From: an uncultured Burkholderiales bacterium
GTDB taxonomy: Bacteria; Pseudomonadota; Gammaproteobacteria; Burkholderiales; Burkholderiaceae_C
NCBI GenBank assembly: GCA_903871865.1
Contig: CAIQIL010000556.1
Location: forward strand, 1 to 7,930
Direction of reading: 5' to 3'
DNA length: 7,930 nt
A model generated the notes under the pieces. The model was not told the origin of the DNA. It saw only the letters and a program-made list of their open reading frames with translations, and did no database searches. Position numbers and translations under genes: made by a program. Each line of letters begins with the position of its first letter. Position 1 is the first letter of the stretch. Positions 1 through 7,614 of this stretch are shown here, in pieces.

Positions 1-196
1 GCTCGGGGTTGTCGGGGCCGTGGAGGTCCCCGCAGTCGCGCACATCGATGCCGGAATCGGCGATGGCCTGGACGATGCCCGCCACGCGCAAGGCGCTCGG
101 CCCCATGCGTGCGCCGATGCGGCCGGCACCGACGTCGGTGGGGGCGCCGATGAGGCTGACGGCGAGGGGGGGGCTCATGGGGCTTTGGGGGCTCAT
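1..196 (-). CDS. rocF: Arginase, N-terminal part (cut by left window edge)
   Basis: Arginase hydrolyses L-arginine to L-ornithine and urea in the cytoplasm, using a dinuclear manganese centre. Only the first 65 residues are in the window. They show the typical arginase opening: LIGAPTDVGAG at residues 15-25, then RIGARMGPSALRVAG at 26-40, and DVRDCGDLHGP at 51-61. The metal-binding His/Asp motifs lie beyond the edge and cannot be checked. The chosen ATG at 196 overlaps the TGA stop of the upstream ocd gene as ATGA, which suggests translational coupling. A second in-frame ATG at 178 would give a protein six residues shorter and closer to the usual arginase start; neither has a strong ribosome binding site. 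The partner gene ocd uses the ornithine made here. Agmatinase and other ureohydrolases are related, but GAPTDVGAG and the ocd neighbour favour arginase. Confidence 0.88.
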   Translation of the reverse strand, partial: MSPQSPMSPPLAVSLIGAPTDVGAGRIGARMGPSALRVAGIVQAIADSGIDVRDCGDLHGPDNPE

Positions 197-1248
197 GCGG
201 CTTGCACTCGGGCGATGGCGGGCACGCGCAAGAGCGCGAACAGGTCCTTCGGGTCGTCCAGCTCGGGCATCAGCGCCAGCGTGCGCAGCAGGCCCAGCTG
301 CTGGGCGCAGTCTCGCATGAAGCGCAGGGCGGAGAAGTCCTCCAGCGCAAAGCCGACGGAGTCGAACACGGTGACCTGGTCGCAATGGCTGCGGCCAGGG
401 GCCTGGCCCGTCAGCACCTGCCACAGCTCGGTCACGGGGAAGTCGGGCGGCATCTGCTGGACCTCGCCCTCGACGCGGGTTTGCGGCGCGTACTCGACGA
501 ACACATCGGCCGCCAGCAACACCTCGGGCGCCAGTTCCGTCTTGCCAGGGCAATCGCCGCCCACGGCATTGAGGTGCATGCCTGGGCGCAACATGTCGGC
601 CGTCACGATGGTGGCGTTGGCCTTGTCGGCCGTGATCGTGGTGACGATGTCGGCGCCCCGCAGGGCGTCTGCCGCGCTGTGGCAGGCCTGCACGCTCAAG
701 CCCGTGTTGGCCAGGTTGCGCACCAGTTTGGCCGTGGCCAGTGCGTCCACATCGAACAGGCGCAGGGTGTGCACGCCCAGCAGGTGGTGGAAGGCCAGGG
801 CCTGGAACTCGCTTTGCGCGCCATTGCCGATCAGCGCCATCACGCGGCTGTCGGGGCGGGCGAGGGCACGCGCGGCCACGGCCGACACCGCAGCGGTGCG
901 CAAGGCCGTGGTCAGGGTCAGTTCGCTGAGCAGCTCGGGCACGCCCGTGGCCACATCGGCCAGCACGCCAAAGGCCATCACGGTGGGCAGGCCCAGGCGG
1001 TGGTTGCCGGGGTGGCCGTTGACGTATTTGAAGCTGTAGGCCTGGCCGTCGGAAATCGGCATCAGCTCGATGACGCCGCCGGCCGAGTGGTGGGCCACGC
1101 GGGCCGATTTGTCGAAGGCTGGCCAGCGGCGGAAATCGGCCTCGATGGCATCGGCCATGCCGCGCAGGCAATGCGCCAGCCCCAGCCGCTGGACGATGTG
1201 GGCGGCGTCGGCCGCGCCGAGGTAGTGCGTGACGATGGCGTGTCCCAT
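193..1248 (-). CDS. ocd: Ornithine cyclodeaminase
   Basis: This enzyme converts L-ornithine to L-proline and ammonia with tightly bound NAD+, completing an arginase-to-proline catabolic route in the cytoplasm. The 351-residue product matches the family length of about 350. Visible motifs are SFKYVNGHPGN around residues 72-82, with the substrate-binding lysine K74; the Rossmann signature IGNGAQSEFQ at 140-149; and NAVGGDCPGKTEL at 227-239, with D232 at the position of the catalytic aspartate known from the Pseudomonas putida enzyme. GGDCPGKTEL separates genuine ornithine cyclodeaminases from mu-crystallin or alanine dehydrogenase relatives, by family knowledge. The ATG at 1248 is chosen because AGGAG lies 7 nt upstream; the frame stays open to 1353, but the extra 35 residues would reach into the divergent promoter region and match no family feature. 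The stop overlaps the arginase start, so the two genes form an operon. Confidence 0.95.
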   Translation of the reverse strand: MGHAIVTHYLGAADAAHIVQRLGLAHCLRGMADAIEADFRRWPAFDKSARVAHHSAGGVIELMPISDGQAYSFKYVNGHPGNHRLGLPTVMAFGVLADVATGVPELLSELTLTTALRTAAVSAVAARALARPDSRVMALIGNGAQSEFQALAFHHLLGVHTLRLFDVDALATAKLVRNLANTGLSVQACHSAADALRGADIVTTITADKANATIVTADMLRPGMHLNAVGGDCPGKTELAPEVLLAADVFVEYAPQTRVEGEVQQMPPDFPVTELWQVLTGQAPGRSHCDQVTVFDSVGFALEDFSALRFMRDCAQQLGLLRTLALMPELDDPKDLFALLRVPAIARVQAA

Positions 1249-1370
1249 GGCCGTGCTCCTGCAGATGAGCACCAGTGTGGCCGGCCCGCACGTCAATGAC
1301 AATCGCCAGGAATGTGCGTTTTGGGTGGCTCTCTTGCCAAAATGGCAGGCCACAGTGTCAAATCGCCAAC
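1249..1370. promoter_or_regulatory. Divergent regulatory region between ocd and the Lrp-type regulator
   Basis: This 122-bp region must hold both divergent promoters and probably the regulator's own sites. Seen directly: a perfect 13-bp palindrome TGCCA-AAA-TGGCA at 1335-1347; a 9-bp palindrome GTCA-A-TGAC at 1292-1300; and the 8-mer AATCGCCA at 1301-1308 and again at 1361-1368, exactly 60 bp apart. On the minus strand TTGACA (1356-1361) is a perfect -35 hexamer pointing toward ocd, but I see no convincing -10 at 16-18 bp, where the 13-bp palindrome lies. Lrp/AsnC proteins usually regulate an adjacent divergent gene and bind several phased sites, so an operator role is plausible but inferred. 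Confidence 0.5.
1256..1260 (-). promoter_or_regulatory. Ribosome binding site of ocd
   Basis: AGGAG on the minus strand, 7 nt before the ATG at 1248. It decides the start of ocd against the longer open frame that begins at 1353. Confidence 0.8.
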
Positions 1371-1796
1371 ATGGATGGCACCGACCAGCAACTGCTCGCC
1401 CTGTTGAGGCAAGACGCCCGCATGACCGTGGCCACCTTGGCGCACAAGCTCGGGGTGTCGCGCGGCACGGTCACCAACCGCATCCGCAAGCTGGAGGATG
1501 CCGGCGTGATCGTGGGCTACACCGTGCGTTTGCGGCCCCATGCCAGCCCGGACGAGATCACCGCCTGGATGAGCATCGCCGTCGTAGGCAACGCGGCCCG
1601 TGCGGTGATTGCCAGCCTGCTGGGCGAACCGGGTGTCGCCCGCCTGAGCGACACCAACGGCCGCTGGGACCTGCTGGCCGAGCTGCGGGCCGAGAACCTG
1701 GTCGGTCTGTCCAAGGTGATGGAACGTGTGCGCCTCATCCGCGGCATCAGCCACACCGAGACCAGCATCCACCTCGAAACCTACCGGCTGCCTTGA
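1371..1796 (+). CDS. Lrp/AsnC family transcriptional regulator
   Basis: A 141-residue DNA-binding regulator of the feast/famine (Lrp/AsnC) family, at the usual length of 140-160. The N-terminus MDGTDQQLLALLRQDAR is the standard family opening. A helix-turn-helix follows at about residues 17-41 (MTVATLAHKLGVSRGTVTNR). A C-terminal RAM ligand-binding and oligomerisation domain spans about 65-137, including TNGRWDLLAEL at 95-105. The ATG at 1371 is preferred over in-frame ATGs at 1275 and 1296 because the family normally begins just before the D..LL motif; no clear ribosome binding site is visible. The gene is divergent from ocd and arginase with a 122-bp gap, so the likely role is arginine- or ornithine-responsive control of that operon; the effector is inferred from context. 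It is convergent with the DUF4148 gene; the 32-bp gap holds a small hairpin (GGCCC-ACC-GGGCC, 1804-1816) without a T-run. Confidence 0.92.
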   Translation: MDGTDQQLLALLRQDARMTVATLAHKLGVSRGTVTNRIRKLEDAGVIVGYTVRLRPHASPDEITAWMSIAVVGNAARAVIASLLGEPGVARLSDTNGRWDLLAELRAENLVGLSKVMERVRLIRGISHTETSIHLETYRLP

Positions 1797-2818: not shown

Positions 2819-3655
2819 GTGGGTCACCCCGTTCCTCACACCTACCCCGAGCACCTGAGGCCTTGCCTGGCCGACCTGCCCGCAGCGCCGGGCGTGTACA
2901 CCTTCCATGGCGCGTCCGGCGGCTTGCCCTTGTACATCGGCAAGAGCGTGAACATCCGTGCCCGCGTGATGAGCCATTTCAATGCACCCGACGAGGCCGC
3001 GATGCTGCGCCAGACGGTGCGCGTCAGCTGCGAGCGCACGGCCGGCGAGATCGGGGCTTTGCTGCTGGAGTCGGCCCGGATCAAGGCCGAGCACCCCCTG
3101 TTCAACCAGCGCCTGCGGCGGTCGAGGCAGCTGTGGTCGCTGCGCTTTGCCGCCGAGCGCCCGGACATCGTGCCCGCGCGGGAGGCCGATGTCAGCGTCG
3201 CCGCCGAGGCAGGCCCGCTCTACGGCCTGTTTGGCAGCCCCCGCGCGGCCCAGGAACATCTGCGCCAGCTGGCCGATGCGCATGGCCTGTGCGGCGGCCT
3301 GCTGGGCCTGGAGCGCTTGAGCCCAGGGAGACCCTGCTTTCGGCACCAGATCAGGCGCTGTCTGGGCGCCTGCTGTGGCGCAGAGCCTGCGCAAGCCCAC
3401 CACGCGCGCCTCTTGGACGCTCTGGCGGCGCACCGTGTGGCCATCTGGCCGCACCAGGGCGCCGTGGCGGTGCTGGAGCGCGACGGCGAACGGCAAGACA
3501 TCCACGTCGTGCGCAACTGGTGTCACCTGGGCACCGTGGGCACGCTGGCGGCGGCACGCCAGTTGAAGCACGTGAGCGCCACTTTCGATGCCGACAGTTA
3601 CCACATCCTCAGCAAAGCCTTGCTCACGGGGGCGGCGGAGACCCTGGCACTGTGA
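2819..3655 (+). CDS. cho: Excinuclease Cho (UvrC-like GIY-YIG endonuclease)
   Basis: Cho makes the 3' incision in nucleotide excision repair after UvrA/UvrB load onto bulky lesions, at a site further from the damage than the UvrC cut. The 278-residue product is close to the E. coli protein (about 295) and lacks UvrC's C-terminal EndoV and HhH domains, as Cho does. The GIY-YIG domain spans about residues 20-100: PGVYTFHG (24-31), LYIGKSVNIRARV (38-50), and GALLLESARIK (79-89), with E84 as the expected metal ligand and Y27, K42 and R47 at active-site positions, followed by PLFN (93-96). A cysteine group C159, C173, C181, C185 follows in the UvrC-like central part. The GTG at 2819 is the only ordinary start between the in-frame stop at 2768 and the conserved YPEHLRP; no ribosome binding site is visible, so the start is uncertain by a few residues. 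The gene stands alone. Confidence 0.93.
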   Translation: MGHPVPHTYPEHLRPCLADLPAAPGVYTFHGASGGLPLYIGKSVNIRARVMSHFNAPDEAAMLRQTVRVSCERTAGEIGALLLESARIKAEHPLFNQRLRRSRQLWSLRFAAERPDIVPAREADVSVAAEAGPLYGLFGSPRAAQEHLRQLADAHGLCGGLLGLERLSPGRPCFRHQIRRCLGACCGAEPAQAHHARLLDALAAHRVAIWPHQGAVAVLERDGERQDIHVVRNWCHLGTVGTLAAARQLKHVSATFDADSYHILSKALLTGAAETLAL

Positions 3656-3709: not shown

Positions 3710-3785
3710 TGGCTCCTCGACCTGGGCTCGAACCAGGGACCTACGGATTAACAGTCCGGCGCTCTACCGACTGAGCTATCGAGGA
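3710..3785 (-). tRNA. tRNA-Asn (anticodon GTT)
   Basis: A complete 76-nt tRNA with encoded CCA. On the minus strand the acceptor TCCTCGA (3785-3779) pairs with TCGAGGA, followed by discriminator G and CCA at 3710. The D arm has AGCTCAGTCGGTAGAGC, the anticodon loop is CTGTTAA with anticodon GTT, and the T arm has GGTTCGAGCCC. The gene has its own promoter (3847-3876) and terminator (3671-3700). The 3' end is intact, and no integrase or duplicated tRNA end lies in the window. Confidence 0.97.
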
Positions 3786-3976: not shown

Positions 3977-6199
3977 TCAGAAATCCAGCTGCGCAGACAC
4001 GGTCACGGTGCGTGCCATCAGCGGGAACAGGTAGGTGTGGCCGCTGAGGGTCGATGCTTCGCGCCAGGCTTGCACATCGAACAGGTTGCTCACGCCCAGG
4101 CGCCAGGTCACGGCCTGGCCGGCCGCCATGCTCTGGGTGTGGCGCACGCTCAGGTCGGTGCGCGTCCAAGAGGGCAGGCGCACGGTGTTGGCGGCGTCCA
4201 CCCAGCGGCGGCCTTCGTGGACGAGGTCAAGCTGGGCCACCACGGCCACGGGTGCCGTGAAGGCGTAGCTACCCGAGGCCTTGAGCACGCTGTCGGGCAC
4301 GTTGATGGGGCTCTGGCCGTTCACGCCGGCTTGCGTGCTGCCGCGCCGCGTGGCGTCGAGCACCATCGCGCTGCCGAACAGGCCCCAGGCGCCTTGGCGG
4401 CCTTGCCAGCTGGCCTCGATGCCCTGGTGGCGGGCGCTGCCGTCGATCACGTAGTCGCCGTTGACGTCGGTGTCCTGCGGGCGGGTGATGCGGAAGGCGT
4501 TCACGCCCCACTGCAGGTTCCAGCCGGACCAGGCGCCTTGGCCCTTGACGCCGATGTCCGTCTGGCGGCTCTTGATGGTTGGCAGGGGCGCACCTGCATT
4601 GGCATACGCCGGGTAGTGGAAGAAGGGCACCGACATCAGCTCGACCCCTTCGCCCCAGCTGATGTAGGCCTGGGTCTGTGGCGCGATGGTGTGACCCAGC
4701 GCCACCCAGGGCGTGGTCACGTTGTCGTTCAGGCTGGCGCCGGTGCTGCCGTCGGTGGGCGTCAGGCCGCGGTGCAGGCGGGTGTGGCGCAGGCCAACCC
4801 AGGCACGGGTGGCTTCGGTCAGCGTCAGGCTGTCGCGGGCGCTGAATTCGGTCGTTTGTTCGCGGCGGGTGGCGGCGGGTGAGATCAAGTCTGGTGCCGG
4901 GTCCACGGGTGCGAAGTTGCCGCTGATGTTGCCGGTGCCTGCGTAGTTGAAGGCGGAATTGCCCACGCGGGTGGCATGCAGGTTGCGCAGCACGCTGAAG
5001 CTCAGGCCATGGCGCACACCGGCCGTGTCCACCTGCCCATCGACCTGGGCCAGCAGCGAGCGGGTGGTGCGGCGCTCGTTGCTGGAGCGGTAATCGTCAA
5101 GGTCGAAGCTGCCATCGTTGCAGAAGCGTGTGTAGTCGCCACTGGCGCTGCAGCCGTAGGGGAACGCCGCACGGTCATCGGTCTTGAGGCGCTGCTCGCC
5201 ATAGGTCATGGTGCTGCGCCATCCGGCTGCCAGGGCCTGGGTCCAGCGCAGGGTGGCGGTGTCGCCACGGAAGACCACGGGCTGCGTCCAGGGCTGGCGG
5301 TTGAGGTTGATGCCGGGGTCGATGTCTTTGGCGGACGGCAGGCGGTCGCCCAGCAGGCTGAAGCCCGGCGCGCTGGGCTGGCTGTGCGTGCTGTGCTCGA
5401 ACTCGGCTTCCAGCTTGGTGTCTGGGGACACGACCCAATCGCCCGCCACGGCCAGCAACTGGCGGCGGCCACGGGTCTGGTCGATGTGGGTGGCCAGGCG
5501 CTCTGCCGCTGCATTGATGCGCAGGCCAAACGCTTGGGGCGACTGCGCTGGGCCAAAGCGCTCGCTCAGGTCGATCGCACCGAGGATGGCGCCGGAGTCC
5601 TGCACGCTGAACAGCGCGCTGCGCACACGGCCTTCCGGGCGCTTGACCAGCAGGTTCACCAGGCCGCCGGGCGAGCTCACGCCCGCTTGCATGCCGCTGG
5701 TGCCCTTGAACAGCTCGACGGCGGATTTGTTGTCCAGCGCGATGCGGGTTTCGGCGTTGATGGGCAGGCCTTCGCGGCGCCAGTTGTAGGCGTTGCTCAG
5801 TGTGAAGCCGCGGATGCTCAGGGCGTCCCAGTAGCCGACCGCGTTGTACGAATCGGTGGTGCTGGCGTCGAGCTTGGTGAGGTCGGCCAGGCGCGTGACC
5901 TGGGCGTTCTGCAAGGCCTCGCGGCTGAAGCTGCTGGCCTGCACGGGCGCTTGCCAGGCGGGCGTGTCACCCAGGCCGCTGATGCTGGCGCGGCCTTGGC
6001 GCTCGGCCGGCGCGGTGACGGTGATGGCGGGCAGGCTGGTGCTGGTGTCCTTCGGCGCTTCTTGCGCCTGGGCCGACGTGGCTGTCAGAGCGGCACAAGC
6101 GGCAGCGGCACAGGCCAGCGCGGTGGGAACGGCGGGGGCCATGTGACGAAGGTGGGCGAGGGCCTGGCGGGACAGGTCGCGGGGCAAAGAACGGCGCAT
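3977..6199 (-). CDS. TonB-dependent outer-membrane receptor under a TPP riboswitch (candidate thiamine or thiamine-precursor importer)
   Basis: A 740-residue outer-membrane beta-barrel receptor that would import a scarce substrate using TonB/ExbBD energy. Signal peptide about 1-46 (AQAQ before E47); TonB-box-like segment AITVTA at 58-63; plug about 85-190 with LSIRGF (127-132) and VELFKGTSGMQAGVSSPGGL (161-180); barrel from about 195 to the terminal phenylalanine of VSAQLDF. Length and plug motifs match the siderophore-receptor group (FhuA/FpvA-like), so similarity alone suggests a ferric siderophore. The leader argues otherwise: a TPP riboswitch lies 121 nt upstream and I see no Fur box. Cys350 and Cys360, the only cysteines I see in the mature part, could form a loop disulphide as in FhuA. 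The ATG at 6199 is chosen for the GGAG 7 nt upstream; the frame stays open from a GTG at 6226 without such a site. The gene appears monocistronic, with no clear terminator after it. Confidence 0.93.
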   Translation of the reverse strand: MRRSLPRDLSRQALAHLRHMAPAVPTALACAAAACAALTATSAQAQEAPKDTSTSLPAITVTAPAERQGRASISGLGDTPAWQAPVQASSFSREALQNAQVTRLADLTKLDASTTDSYNAVGYWDALSIRGFTLSNAYNWRREGLPINAETRIALDNKSAVELFKGTSGMQAGVSSPGGLVNLLVKRPEGRVRSALFSVQDSGAILGAIDLSERFGPAQSPQAFGLRINAAAERLATHIDQTRGRRQLLAVAGDWVVSPDTKLEAEFEHSTHSQPSAPGFSLLGDRLPSAKDIDPGINLNRQPWTQPVVFRGDTATLRWTQALAAGWRSTMTYGEQRLKTDDRAAFPYGCSASGDYTRFCNDGSFDLDDYRSSNERRTTRSLLAQVDGQVDTAGVRHGLSFSVLRNLHATRVGNSAFNYAGTGNISGNFAPVDPAPDLISPAATRREQTTEFSARDSLTLTEATRAWVGLRHTRLHRGLTPTDGSTGASLNDNVTTPWVALGHTIAPQTQAYISWGEGVELMSVPFFHYPAYANAGAPLPTIKSRQTDIGVKGQGAWSGWNLQWGVNAFRITRPQDTDVNGDYVIDGSARHQGIEASWQGRQGAWGLFGSAMVLDATRRGSTQAGVNGQSPINVPDSVLKASGSYAFTAPVAVVAQLDLVHEGRRWVDAANTVRLPSWTRTDLSVRHTQSMAAGQAVTWRLGVSNLFDVQAWREASTLSGHTYLFPLMARTVTVSAQLDF

Positions 6200-6206
6200 G
6201 CAAAAA

Positions 6207-6210
6207 CTCC
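6207..6210 (-). promoter_or_regulatory. Ribosome binding site of the TonB-dependent receptor
   Basis: GGAG on the minus strand, 7 nt before the ATG at 6199, inside TGGAGTTTTT. It fixes the start and is the likely target of riboswitch control, because the ACTCC at 6237-6241 is complementary to it. Confidence 0.75.
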
Positions 6211-6218
6211 ATCGCAGT

Positions 6219-6248
6219 GAGCGCACTCCCGGTCAGGGAGTGGGGCTC
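6219..6248 (-). promoter_or_regulatory. Leader hairpin, probable riboswitch expression platform
   Basis: On the minus strand CACTCCC (6236-6242) pairs with GGGAGTG (6224-6230) around a 5-nt loop, and GAGC (6245-6248) with GCTC (6219-6222) extends the stem across a small internal loop. The ACTCC in the left arm could instead pair with GGAGT of the ribosome binding site at 6206-6210, so the two structures exclude each other. This fits translational control. No T-run directly follows the hairpin: TTTTT comes 11 nt later, after the ribosome binding site, so attenuation by termination is less likely. Confidence 0.5.
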
Positions 6249-6319
6249 GCGCAAGGAAGGGCGCGTGCAAACCGGGTGGCCATGCGCAAAGGCATGGCGG
6301 GCACATGGCGGCGTCTTGG

Positions 6320-6413
6320 CTGGCTTCCCTACGCGAGGATGATCTCGGTCAGGTTCGAAGGGACTCTCTCAGCGGGCAACACGCACATGGCGTGGGCCCG
6401 CACCCCTAGCAAG
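6320..6413 (-). promoter_or_regulatory. TPP riboswitch (THI element)
   Basis: Read on the minus strand, all conserved THI-box blocks appear in order: AGGGGTGC (6407-6400), CTGAGA (6372-6367), GAACCTGA (6356-6349), and CGCGTAGGGAAG (6335-6324). The expected helices can be drawn: P1 with CTTGCT (6413-6408) against AGCCAG (6325-6320), one mismatch; P2 GCGGGC (6401-6396) with GCCCGC (6377-6372); a P3 hairpin CACGC with GCGTG (6394-6380); P4 TCCCT (6363-6359) with AGGGA (6330-6326); and P5 CGAG with CTCG around ATCATC (6347-6334). TPP binding normally lowers expression of the downstream gene, here the TonB-dependent receptor, whose ATG is 121 nt further on. An additional hairpin GCCATGC-CTTTGC-GCATGGC lies at 6279-6298, between the aptamer and the expression platform. 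Confidence 0.93.
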
Positions 6414-6418
6414 CACAG

Positions 6419-6424
6419 ATTGTA
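6419..6424 (-). promoter_or_regulatory. -10 box of the riboswitch and receptor transcript (TACAAT)
   Basis: TACAAT on the minus strand ends 6 nt before the riboswitch P1 stem at 6413, so transcription would begin almost exactly at the aptamer's first base. No good -35 hexamer sits 16-18 bp upstream (CCGATG at 17 bp), which may mean an activator is needed or the promoter is weak. A small hairpin GATGC-ACGC-GCATC lies at 6432-6445, in the spacer region. Confidence 0.55.
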
Positions 6425-6458
6425 AAGCGCAGATGCGCGTGCATCGGCCCGTGTCAGC

Positions 6459-6513
6459 GCGCAAACGGTGCACAAACGATGCACAAAAGGTGCGCAAACA
6501 GTGCTCAACCGGT
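6459..6513. repeat. Five 11-bp tandem repeats (consensus GCRCAAACGGT)
   Basis: On the plus strand the units are GCGCAAACGGT (6459), GCACAAACGAT (6470), GCACAAAAGGT (6481), GCGCAAACAGT (6492) and GCTCAACCGGT (6503). A decayed sixth copy, GTTCAGGCGGG, starts at 6514. The period is exactly 11 bp, about one helical turn, so the CAAAC cores face the same side of the helix. The array fills the gap between the stop of the ferredoxin reductase gene (6529) and the receptor promoter (-10 at 6419-6424), on the upstream side of that promoter. Since 11 is not a multiple of three, it is unlikely to be coding. Confidence 0.85.
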
Positions 6514-6528
6514 GTTCAGGCGGGGGGC

Positions 6529-7614
6529 TCACACGCCCAGGCGTTGGTGCAGCACCGGGCTGGTGGTCGTGTAGAGCAGGTGCGAAGGCGCGTCGGGGCG
6601 CAGCTCGACGGCCAGCGCGTGTGCGGCCAGCGTGGCTTCGTGGAAGCCGCACAGCAGCAGGCGCTTTTTGCCCGGGTAGGTGTTGATGTCGCCCACGGCG
6701 TGCACCCTGGGCAGTGAGGTGGCGAACGTCGCTGTGGACACGTTGACCTGTTTGCGCTCCAGCGCCATGCCCCAGGTGCTGAGCGGGCCCAGCTTGGGGC
6801 TCAGGCCCAGGCGCACGAGCAGGTGGTCCAGCGGCAGGCTGCGCGTCTGGCCATCTGCACCGAGCAGGCTCAGTGCCTGGACCGCATCGCCTTCGGTGAC
6901 GCTGTGGCATTCGGCCGATTGCGGCAAGCCGATCTCCAACTGCACGCTGCCTCGATGGATGAGCTCGCGCACAGCGGCTTCCAGCGCAGCGTCGGCCTGG
7001 AAGACGTCGCGGCGGTGCAGCAAGGTCAGTCGCGATGGGCGGTGTGCTGGTTGGGCTGCTTGCGCAATGGCCAGCACCGCCGACAGGGCTTCCTCGCCGC
7101 CACCCGCCACCACGAGGTGTTGGCCGGCCCAGGGCGGTGCCACGCTGTCGTCTTCCGTCAGGTGGTGGTGGACGTTGATGGCGCCGTCCAGCTCGGCCAC
7201 ACCCAGGCCCCGCGGCAGGAAGGCACCGGCGCCCGCGGCGATCAGCACGGATTGGGCCTGGAACACGAGGCCGCGATCGGTGGTGACGGTCCAGGCGCCA
7301 TCGGCCGTGGCTGTGAGGCTTTGCACCAGCTGGCCCAGGTGGAGGTGCTGGTGCACGTGAGCGCTTCCCGCATCGGCCCGGGGCAGGAAAGGCGCCGCCT
7401 GCTGGAGCAGGGACTGCGTCAGTTCACGGCCGGTGCACACAGGCACGCCGGGCACGTCGTAAATCGGCTTGTCGGGGTAGAGCGCCATGCACTGGCCGCC
7501 CGCGAAGGGCAGGGCGTCCACGACCTCGACGCTCAGGCCGAGCAGGCCCAGCTGGAAGGCCTGGAACAGGCCCACCGGGCCCGCCCCGATGACCAGGGCG
7601 TCGGTGTGGATCAT
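6529..7614 (-). CDS. Ferredoxin-NADP+ reductase, thioredoxin-reductase-like type
   Basis: A 361-residue FAD flavoprotein that moves electrons between NADP(H) and ferredoxin in the cytoplasm. The FAD-binding motif is VIGAGPVGLFQA at residues 8-19. The NADP(H)-binding motif is VVAGGGEEALSAV (168-180), with LLHRRDVFQA (198-207), whose arginine pair suits the 2'-phosphate of NADP. The second FAD motif is HAVGDINTYPGKKRLLLCGFHEA (305-327), diagnostic of the type-2 ferredoxin reductases. There is no CxxC redox pair, so it is not a thioredoxin reductase. The ATG at 7614 is 4 bp after the ferredoxin stop, which suggests co-transcription and makes that ferredoxin the probable partner. The ribosome binding site is weak. 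I see no terminator with a T-run between its stop and the 11-bp repeats, so some read-through into the receptor leader is possible. Confidence 0.92.
   Translation of the reverse strand: MIHTDALVIGAGPVGLFQAFQLGLLGLSVEVVDALPFAGGQCMALYPDKPIYDVPGVPVCTGRELTQSLLQQAAPFLPRADAGSAHVHQHLHLGQLVQSLTATADGAWTVTTDRGLVFQAQSVLIAAGAGAFLPRGLGVAELDGAINVHHHLTEDDSVAPPWAGQHLVVAGGGEEALSAVLAIAQAAQPAHRPSRLTLLHRRDVFQADAALEAAVRELIHRGSVQLEIGLPQSAECHSVTEGDAVQALSLLGADGQTRSLPLDHLLVRLGLSPKLGPLSTWGMALERKQVNVSTATFATSLPRVHAVGDINTYPGKKRLLLCGFHEATLAAHALAVELRPDAPSHLLYTTTSPVLHQRLGV

What the first reader, a model, noticed from the sequence alone, without database searches (positions are those of the whole stretch)
6199..6413. TPP riboswitch controlling a TonB-dependent receptor: candidate outer-membrane thiamine importer
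The receptor looks like a siderophore receptor by sequence, yet its leader contains a near-complete THI element (AGGGGTGC, CTGAGA, GAACCTGA, CGCGTAGGGAAG, with P1-P5 drawable) starting right after a TACAAT box. TPP riboswitches almost always sit before thiamine synthesis or transport genes. So the likely cargo is thiamine, a phosphorylated thiamine, or a pyrimidine or thiazole precursor, possibly in complexed form. Thiamine-regulated TonB receptors were predicted earlier, mainly in Bacteroidetes as I recall; for a Burkholderiales receptor of the siderophore type this assignment may be new. No thiamine gene is linked in the window, so the riboswitch is the only clue.
Basis: partly seen in the sequence, partly recalled or inferred. 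Interest (0 to 1): 0.85.

Follow-up and report, generated by a model that had tools for sequence, protein, structure and literature searches.

The report
Riboswitch-controlled outer-membrane vitamin B1 importer
In this bacterium and in 69 of 70 related genera examined, the gene for an outer-membrane receptor whose relatives are often named iron importers in databases sits behind an RNA of the vitamin-B1-sensing riboswitch family, so the receptor likely imports vitamin B1 (thiamine) or a close relative of it rather than iron.

Summary
In detail: Rfam's TPP riboswitch model matches 6417-6309 (minus) at 58.1 bits (cut-off 54.3), directly before a TonB-dependent receptor (likely ATG at 6199). The nearest named relatives are Aquabacterium. 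The link between aptamer and receptor is conserved: one receptor locus from each of 70 genera of the GTDB family was examined, and 69 have the aptamer upstream on the same strand. In the one exception the receptor is the last gene of a thiO-thiS-thiG-thiE run. In 5 of the 70 genera thiamine biosynthesis or salvage genes lie within about 4 kb. One small genome of the genus shows no thiC, thiG or thiE, and its only detected TPP riboswitch is the receptor's. By fold the receptor resembles FoxA, FemA and FhuA; it misses NCBI's siderophore-receptor cut-off, and no Fur box stands out. The best reading is an outer-membrane importer of thiamine (or a derivative), repressed by TPP. Six of 34 receptors in the genus lack the riboswitch. 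The kind is known: Bacteroides OMthi was tested by genetics, and a Variovorax receptor was predicted in print in 2023. I found no paper describing the family-wide conservation. Cargo and switching are not shown experimentally.

The parts
6309..6417 (-). TPP riboswitch aptamer (THI element)
   Evidence: RF00059 58.1 bits, cut-off 54.3, E 1.1e-9; model R1 84.1 bits (the window's aptamer is one of the 23 sequences R1 was built from)
6419..6424 (-). TACAAT, likely -10 box of the leader's own promoter
   Evidence: sequence. A TANAAT box lies in the 26 nt around the aptamer start in 27 of 92 leaders and in the next 26 nt upstream in 32 of 92, against 1 and 0 of 92 in the two stretches further up. 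No sigma-70-type promoter match was found in the scan
6324..6337 (-). aptamer 3' strand CTCGCGTAGGGAAG: one side of the predicted alternative (switch) helix
   Evidence: 14 pairs including 2 G-U with 6259-6246; duplex energy z -2.6 to -4.6 in the window and its three nearest relatives, folds. Predicted only
6246..6259 (-). CTTCCTTGCGCGAG: anti-aptamer side of the predicted switch helix
   Evidence: identical in L002-L005 although the stretch before it differs in L005
6207..6210 (-). GGAG, likely Shine-Dalgarno of the receptor
   Evidence: sequence, 7 nt before ATG 6199
3977..6199 (-). TonB-dependent outer-membrane receptor (740 aa from ATG 6199), predicted thiamine importer
   Evidence: Pfam Plug and barrel; TIGR01783 183.8 bits, below its cut-off of 223.5; AlphaFold2 model pLDDT 82.8, nearest solved folds FoxA, FemA, FhuA
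3713..3785 (-). tRNA-Asn directly downstream, syntenic marker of the locus
   Evidence: tRNA; tRNA-Asn on the same strand within 600 nt in 57 of 62 genera with at least 300 nt held downstream
6529..7614 (-). pyridine-nucleotide/FAD oxidoreductase (ferredoxin-NADP reductase-like by its place beside fdxA) upstream, syntenic marker
   Evidence: Pfam Pyr_redox_2; a relative lies upstream in 47 of 68 genera with at least 1.8 kb held upstream

Best explanation
The receptor gene (6199-3977, minus) carries a TPP riboswitch aptamer (6417-6309) in its leader, and its product is predicted to import thiamine, or a close derivative such as a thiamine phosphate, across the outer membrane with energy from TonB. 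Transcription likely starts just downstream of the TACAAT box, so the aptamer is the first thing made. When intracellular TPP is low, the 3' strand of the aptamer (6337-6324) would pair with a segment downstream (6259-6246); the aptamer is then broken and the ribosome site stays open. When TPP is high it would bind and lock the aptamer, the leader would refold with the ribosome site less accessible, and receptor synthesis would fall. Shown here: the aptamer, its conservation before orthologous receptors, the nearness of thi genes in some genera. Predicted by model: the receptor fold. Inferred: the cargo, the direction of control, the switch helix, and the step across the inner membrane, for which no thiamine importer was identified in the genus.
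For: RF00059 over its gathering score. Genus (own genome plus 36): 34 receptor hits, 27 with the aptamer upstream on the same strand. Family: receptor profile in 154 of 299 genomes and 75 of 126 genera; one locus for each of 70 genera, 69 with the aptamer upstream, median 131 nt from aptamer end to the aligned receptor; all 69 keep CTGAGA, 61 keep three core motifs. Thi genes within about 4 kb in 5 of 70 genera: L133 (thiO-thiS-thiG-thiE-receptor), L110 (thiO-thiS-thiG-thiE, TPP, receptor, thiD on the other strand), L114 (divergent thiD-thiO-thiG-thiE; L148 of the same genus alike), L136 (divergent thiM-thiE-thiD, cytX-like gene beyond), L140 (thiO-thiG-thiE downstream). Some of these score under NCBIfam's curated cut-offs (ThiO, CytX, the ThiE of L133) while the ThiG, TMP-TENI and Phos_pyr_kin domains scanned pass Pfam's. 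In the genus the other TPP riboswitch precedes thiC. G006 shows no thiC, thiG or thiE and one TPP riboswitch, the receptor's. Outside the family 2 of 3 distant receptors also have it. Fur box best match 10 of 19, reached by 288 of 500 shuffles.
Against: Six receptors of the genus have no riboswitch and start right behind the reductase gene, so TPP control is not indispensable. The fold and nearest solved structures are siderophore receptors. No known inner-membrane thiamine importer was identified in 41 genomes of the genus: CytX 0 over cut-off, best 76.5 bits against 220-236 for the thi-linked ones, though no control genome passes that cut-off either; ThiB 0 over cut-off, 28 below it. PF04973 proteins occur in 34 of 41 but sit before a NadR-kinase-like gene in 9 of 10 loci read, and the one scanned passes the nicotinamide riboside PnuC model. 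Most genomes of the genus have thiC and thiG, so import should not be needed for growth. The switch helix holds only in the window's nearest relatives: 5 of 93 leaders have z at or below -2, four of them these. G006's missing genes lie together in relatives, so one assembly gap could explain it (94% complete).
Confidence: 0.65

Rival explanations
1. The receptor imports a thiamine precursor or breakdown product (hydroxymethylpyrimidine, a thiazole, or another vitamer) rather than intact thiamine; the cell finishes the synthesis with ThiD, ThiM and ThiE.
For: A CytX-like gene (220-236 bits, under the cut-off of 309.85), whose family is named a putative hydroxymethylpyrimidine transporter, stands in the thi cluster next to the receptor in 3 genera (L136; L133/L158; L110/L159), once with thiM and thiD. 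Nearly all genomes of the genus keep thiC and thiG, so most of the pathway is there.
Against: G006 has no detectable ThiE, so it could not join precursors (one assembly gap could explain this). No CytX over cut-off in 41 genomes of the genus, best 76.5 bits.
Confidence: 0.22
2. It is a siderophore (ferric chelate) receptor that TPP happens to regulate, for instance to supply iron for the iron-sulphur enzyme ThiC when thiamine is short.
For: Fold and closest solved relatives are ferric siderophore receptors; named relatives are called iron complex outermembrane receptor or siderophore receptor; ferredoxin and a reductase gene lie upstream.
Against: No Fur-box-like site above chance; below the TIGR01783 cut-off; TPP aptamer in 69 of 70 genera; thi genes nearby in 5 genera; kept with its riboswitch in a genome without detectable thiC.
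Confidence: 0.1
3. The aptamer is a relic or acts in another way, and the receptor is effectively unregulated by TPP.
For: Six receptors of the genus do without it; no intrinsic terminator was found between aptamer and start codon; the predicted change in accessibility of the ribosome site is modest, and absent in L004 when the unconstrained fold is the comparison.
Against: Aptamer core kept, with compensatory changes (23 aptamers), across 69 genera; a relic would decay.
Confidence: 0.03

Closest known systems
OMthi (BT2390) of Bacteroides thetaiotaomicron, PMC5613172 (passages read)
   Same: TonB-dependent receptor behind a TPP riboswitch; a biosynthesis mutant that also lacks it needs about ten times more thiamine
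   Different: Other phylum; found with pnuT and tnr3, which are not in the window; its transcript changed little with thiamine in that study; sequence relationship not tested here, as BT2390 could not be fetched
TonB-dependent receptor-like protein in the Variovorax thiamine operon, PMC10409787 (passages read)
   Same: Same order (taxonomy recalled); TPP riboswitch; predicted thiamine transporter. L133/L158 has a like layout (TPP, permease, thiD on the other strand, thiO, thiS, thiG, thiE, receptor) and may be such a genome
   Different: A single genome mentioned in one sentence; in the window the receptor stands alone with its own aptamer between a reductase gene and tRNA-Asn
omr1 receptors near TPP riboswitches in SAR86 and Flavobacteriales, PMC10881298 (passages read)
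   Same: Putative TonB-dependent vitamin B1 transporters near a riboswitch
   Different: Other lineages; not compared by sequence here
FhuA, FoxA, FemA and BauA siderophore receptors
   Different: 16-21% identity; iron-chelate ligands; the window's receptor scores below the TIGR01783 cut-off
PqqU/YncD, importer of the cofactor PQQ
   Same: Siderophore-receptor-like fold whose solved ligand (9c4o) is a cofactor and not iron; listed among the matches
   Different: Different ligand; no riboswitch link known to me (recalled)

Membership tests
TPP riboswitch (RF00059) | score over Rfam's gathering threshold | tested here: met
   58.1 against 54.3 bits
TPP riboswitch (RF00059) | conserved core and paired helices with covariation | tested here: met
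   core motifs present; 92.8% of cells paired, 15 of 23 pairs with double changes over 23 aptamers
TPP riboswitch (RF00059) | binds TPP and changes gene expression | not testable with these tools
   no binding or expression data; switch folds predicted only
TonB-dependent outer-membrane receptor | Plug domain and receptor beta-barrel | tested here: met
TonB-dependent outer-membrane receptor | TonB box at the N-terminus | not tested
   not examined
TonB-dependent siderophore receptor (TIGR01783) | score over the curated cut-off | tested here: not met
   183.8 against 223.5 bits
TonB-dependent siderophore receptor (TIGR01783) | iron control (Fur box) | tested here: inconclusive
   best match 10 of 19 in 6199-6560, 288 of 500 shuffles equal or better; consensus recalled, and this organism's own box is not known
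Thiamine TonB receptor (OMthi/omr1 kind) | preceded by a TPP riboswitch | tested here: met
   69 of 70 genera
Thiamine TonB receptor (OMthi/omr1 kind) | linked to thiamine genes | tested here: inconclusive
   not in the window; in 5 of 70 related genera
Thiamine TonB receptor (OMthi/omr1 kind) | needed for growth at low thiamine | not testable with these tools
   needs mutants
Thiamine TonB receptor (OMthi/omr1 kind) | sequence kinship with BT2390 or omr1 | not tested

The most novel reading that the evidence does not exclude
One vertically inherited receptor clade, present in over half of the sampled genera of the window's GTDB family and named in databases, where named at all, as iron, siderophore or plain TonB receptors, is in fact this group's outer-membrane vitamin B1 importer, riboswitch-controlled nearly everywhere; a large set of annotations is wrong, and bacteria that can mostly make B1 themselves also scavenge it actively.
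Probability: 0.65. Interest if true: 0.65.

Novelty: new member of a known kind. Interest (0 to 1): 0.55.

Why it matters
Vitamin B1 exchange shapes microbial communities, and genomes are scored for B1 uptake by listing known transporters. If this clade is a B1 importer, uptake has been overlooked in a large bacterial family whose receptors carry iron-transport names, and cargo prediction from fold or sequence alone is misleading. The riboswitch gives a direct, simple test, and the receptor would be another case, beside the PQQ and B12 receptors, of TonB-dependent transport of a cofactor.

Tried and rejected
Searched for a known inner-membrane thiamine partner in 41 genomes of the genus: CytX 0 over cut-off (4 weak matches; the cut-off is reached in none of the 14 control genomes), ThiB 0 over cut-off (28 genomes with a match below it), PF04973 in 34 of 41. 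The last looked like PnuT at first; a NadR-kinase-like gene follows in 9 of 10 loci read (the one scanned has 43 bits on TIGR01526, under its cut-off, and Pfam AAA_28), and one PF04973 protein passes the nicotinamide riboside PnuC model, so I do not count it. The tenth locus (L171) is a second copy with another neighbourhood.

A general anti-aptamer helix was tested on 93 of 95 leaders (two dropped for want of the AGGRAAG motif or of length) and found only in the window's clade. A plug-loop motif YNxxGYWD as a marker of the TPP-linked clade failed: 63 of 107 proteins have it exactly, and G504, with aptamer, lacks it much as G043, without, does. In the tree of the genus the aptamer-less receptors do not form one clade (four do), so loss happened more than once or the tree, weakly supported at its base (0.23), is wrong there. 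No sigma-70 promoter match and no terminator between aptamer and start codon. Of six low-scoring aptamers found by my model, Rfam reports two (L091, L094, both under the gathering score) and not L109, L111, L113 and L143 at E 0.01; all six have CTGAGA and an insert after GAACCTG, so I keep them in the 69.

Literature (search listings): searches showed no description of the family-wide pattern. Rodionov 2002 (JBC 277:48949), cited as the source of the thiamine regulon predictions, was not read. PMC3766115 (passages) lists only Burkholderia and Ralstonia among the betaproteobacteria and reports no TPP-regulated thiamine transporters there. PMC5756330 and PMC5770649 (passages) have TPP riboswitches before thiC only and TonB receptors behind cobalamin riboswitches, and PMC7011215 (passages) a TPP riboswitch before thiC, so they are not precedents.

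In the family count, 5 of 75 genera with a receptor were not sampled: the window's own, counted in the genus, and four whose places were not listed (g31, g73, g100, g103). One search listed only 150 of its matches and was not used for the count. A first count of tRNA-Asn mixed two denominators and was redone.
Full report
OBSERVATION. The leader of the receptor gene holds a full-length TPP riboswitch aptamer, RF00059, 6417-6309 on the minus strand, 58.1 bits against a gathering score of 54.3. The receptor has the Plug and barrel domains of TonB-dependent receptors; the likely start is ATG 6199, seven bases behind GGAG.

WHERE IT IS. The nearest named relatives are Aquabacterium (98% and 90% protein identity, L062 and L064). 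The window is a whole contig of a 3.27 Mb, 711-contig assembly, 82% complete. Upstream on the same strand are fdxA and a pyridine-nucleotide/FAD oxidoreductase gene, here called reductase (ferredoxin-NADP reductase-like is my reading of its place); downstream is a tRNA. The genome has the de novo pathway: part of thiC, thiG and a TMP-TENI (ThiE-type) domain on contig C260. The contig begins inside thiC, so its leader is not on it, which can explain why only one TPP riboswitch was found in this genome.

IS IT CONSERVED? In the own genome plus 36 of the same genus, 34 receptors were found at E 1e-60; 27 have the aptamer just upstream on the same strand. Six do not: G004, G015, G031 and G034, G030's copy on C145 and G024; in these the likely start lies within about 40 nt of the end of the reductase gene. 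One (G032) is cut by a contig end. G030 also has a second, partial receptor with an aptamer (L156). The other TPP riboswitch of the genus precedes thiC.

In the GTDB family, a profile of 24 receptors matched 154 of 299 genomes and 75 of 126 genera at E 1e-100. One locus was taken from each of 70 of these genera and searched with a covariance model built from 23 aptamers. In 69 of 70 an aptamer lies upstream on the same strand (one of them, L083, cut by a contig end), at a median of 131 nt before the aligned part of the receptor. All 69 hold CTGAGA and 61 hold all three core motifs. Six score low because of an insert after GAACCTG; Rfam itself reports two of these six at E 0.01, both under its gathering score. 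The locus is syntenic: tRNA-Asn follows in 57 of 62 loci with at least 300 nt held, and the reductase gene precedes in 47 of 68 with at least 1.8 kb held. So this is, in the main, one inherited gene with its riboswitch and not a set of chance meetings. Outside the family, three distant receptors were seen: G053 and G504 have the aptamer, G043 has not.

LINK TO THIAMINE GENES. A search of all ORFs in the 70 loci with eight thi proteins found thi genes in 5 of them (families; thiS read by eye). In G168 (L133, L158) the receptor is the last gene of a thiO-thiS-thiG-thiE run; a TPP aptamer stands 2.2 kb before thiO, in front of a cytX-like gene, with thiD on the other strand between them. This is the one genus whose receptor has no aptamer of its own. 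In G123 (L110, L159) the order is a reductase gene, TPP, cytX-like gene, thiO-thiS-thiG-thiE, TPP, receptor, with thiD on the other strand. In G130 (and G224 of its genus) the receptor is divergent from thiD-thiO-thiG-thiE, and in G177 from thiM-thiE-thiD with a cytX-like gene beyond; each side has its own aptamer. In G206 thiO-thiG-thiE lie 1.3 kb downstream on the other strand. The ThiO and CytX matches, and ThiE of L133, are under NCBIfam's curated cut-offs; ThiD, ThiM and ThiE of L148 and L136 pass them.

A POSSIBLE AUXOTROPH. G006 (2.6 Mb, 94% complete) shows no thiC, thiG or ThiE and one TPP riboswitch, the receptor's. If real, it must take up intact thiamine or a phosphate of it. The three genes lie together in relatives, so a single gap in the assembly could also explain it.

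HOW IT LIKELY WORKS. A TANAAT box lies in the 26 nt around the aptamer start in 27 of 92 leaders and in the next 26 nt upstream in 32 of 92, against 1 and 0 further up, so the leader probably has its own promoter, though the promoter scan found none. In the window and its three nearest relatives the aptamer strand 6337-6324 can pair with 6259-6246 over 14 pairs (z -2.98, -2.63, -2.88 and -4.58 against shuffled leaders). Folding with the aptamer enforced gives a mean unpaired probability of GGAG of 0.35, 0.19, 0.40 and 0.03; with the aptamer's P2 forbidden 0.54, 0.52, 0.54 and 0.51; unconstrained 0.52, 0.50, 0.39 and 0.60. That fits repression of translation by TPP, weakly. In the other leaders no such helix is seen (5 of 93 at z -2 or below, four of them these), so the expression platform probably differs between lineages.

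WHAT IS NOT SHOWN. Cargo, TPP binding, direction of control and the inner-membrane step. CytX and ThiB are not over cut-off in any of 41 genomes of the genus, with the reservation that ThiB-like proteins score below cut-off in 28 and that no control genome passes the CytX cut-off; the PnuC-type proteins look like nicotinamide riboside carriers.

KNOWN OR NEW. TPP-controlled TonB receptors are a known kind: OMthi of Bacteroides thetaiotaomicron, with growth defects in mutants (PMC5613172, passages); omr1 in SAR86 and Flavobacteriales (PMC10881298, passages); predicted thiamine receptors falling in three sequence clusters, one in a region with hydroxamate siderophore receptors (PMC2771747, passages); and one receptor in a Variovorax thi operon (PMC10409787, passages). 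The survey PMC3766115 (passages) lists only Burkholderia and Ralstonia among the betaproteobacteria and found no TPP-regulated thiamine transporters there. I found no paper describing the pattern across this family (search listings), but most subscription papers and the RegPrecise database were not searchable.

Noticed in passing
L022, L025, L030, L031, L152, L162: Six Aquabacterium-type receptors lack the riboswitch and start within about 40 nt of the reductase gene, probably co-transcribed with it; in the receptor tree they do not form one clade.
   Followed up: partly
L156 1-4362 and L162: Genome G030 carries two receptor copies (one partial, at a contig end), one with and one without a TPP riboswitch.
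   Followed up: partly
L091, L094, L109, L111, L113, L143: Their TPP aptamers have an insert, mostly hairpin-like to the eye, after GAACCTG, which lowers or hides the Rfam match; possibly a variant form of the aptamer.
   Followed up: partly
L115, L149: Two receptor genes in tandem behind a single TPP aptamer (G132, G353).
   Followed up: no
L157 (G006): A reduced 2.6 Mb genome of the genus without detectable thiC, thiG and thiE that keeps the TPP-controlled receptor.
   Followed up: partly
L037, L038, L045: The thiC riboswitches read here differ in type from the receptor ones (CCGGGGTG start and an insert at the place of the P3a helix), so the receptor's aptamer does not look like a recent copy of thiC's.
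   Followed up: no
window 1275-1796 (+) and 193-1353 (-): An Lrp/AsnC-type regulator ORF overlaps the start of an ornithine cyclodeaminase ORF on the other strand, a likely divergent regulator-target pair.
   Followed up: no
window 2819-3655 (+): Cho-type excinuclease (NF007833 over its cut-off) convergent with the tRNA.
   Followed up: no
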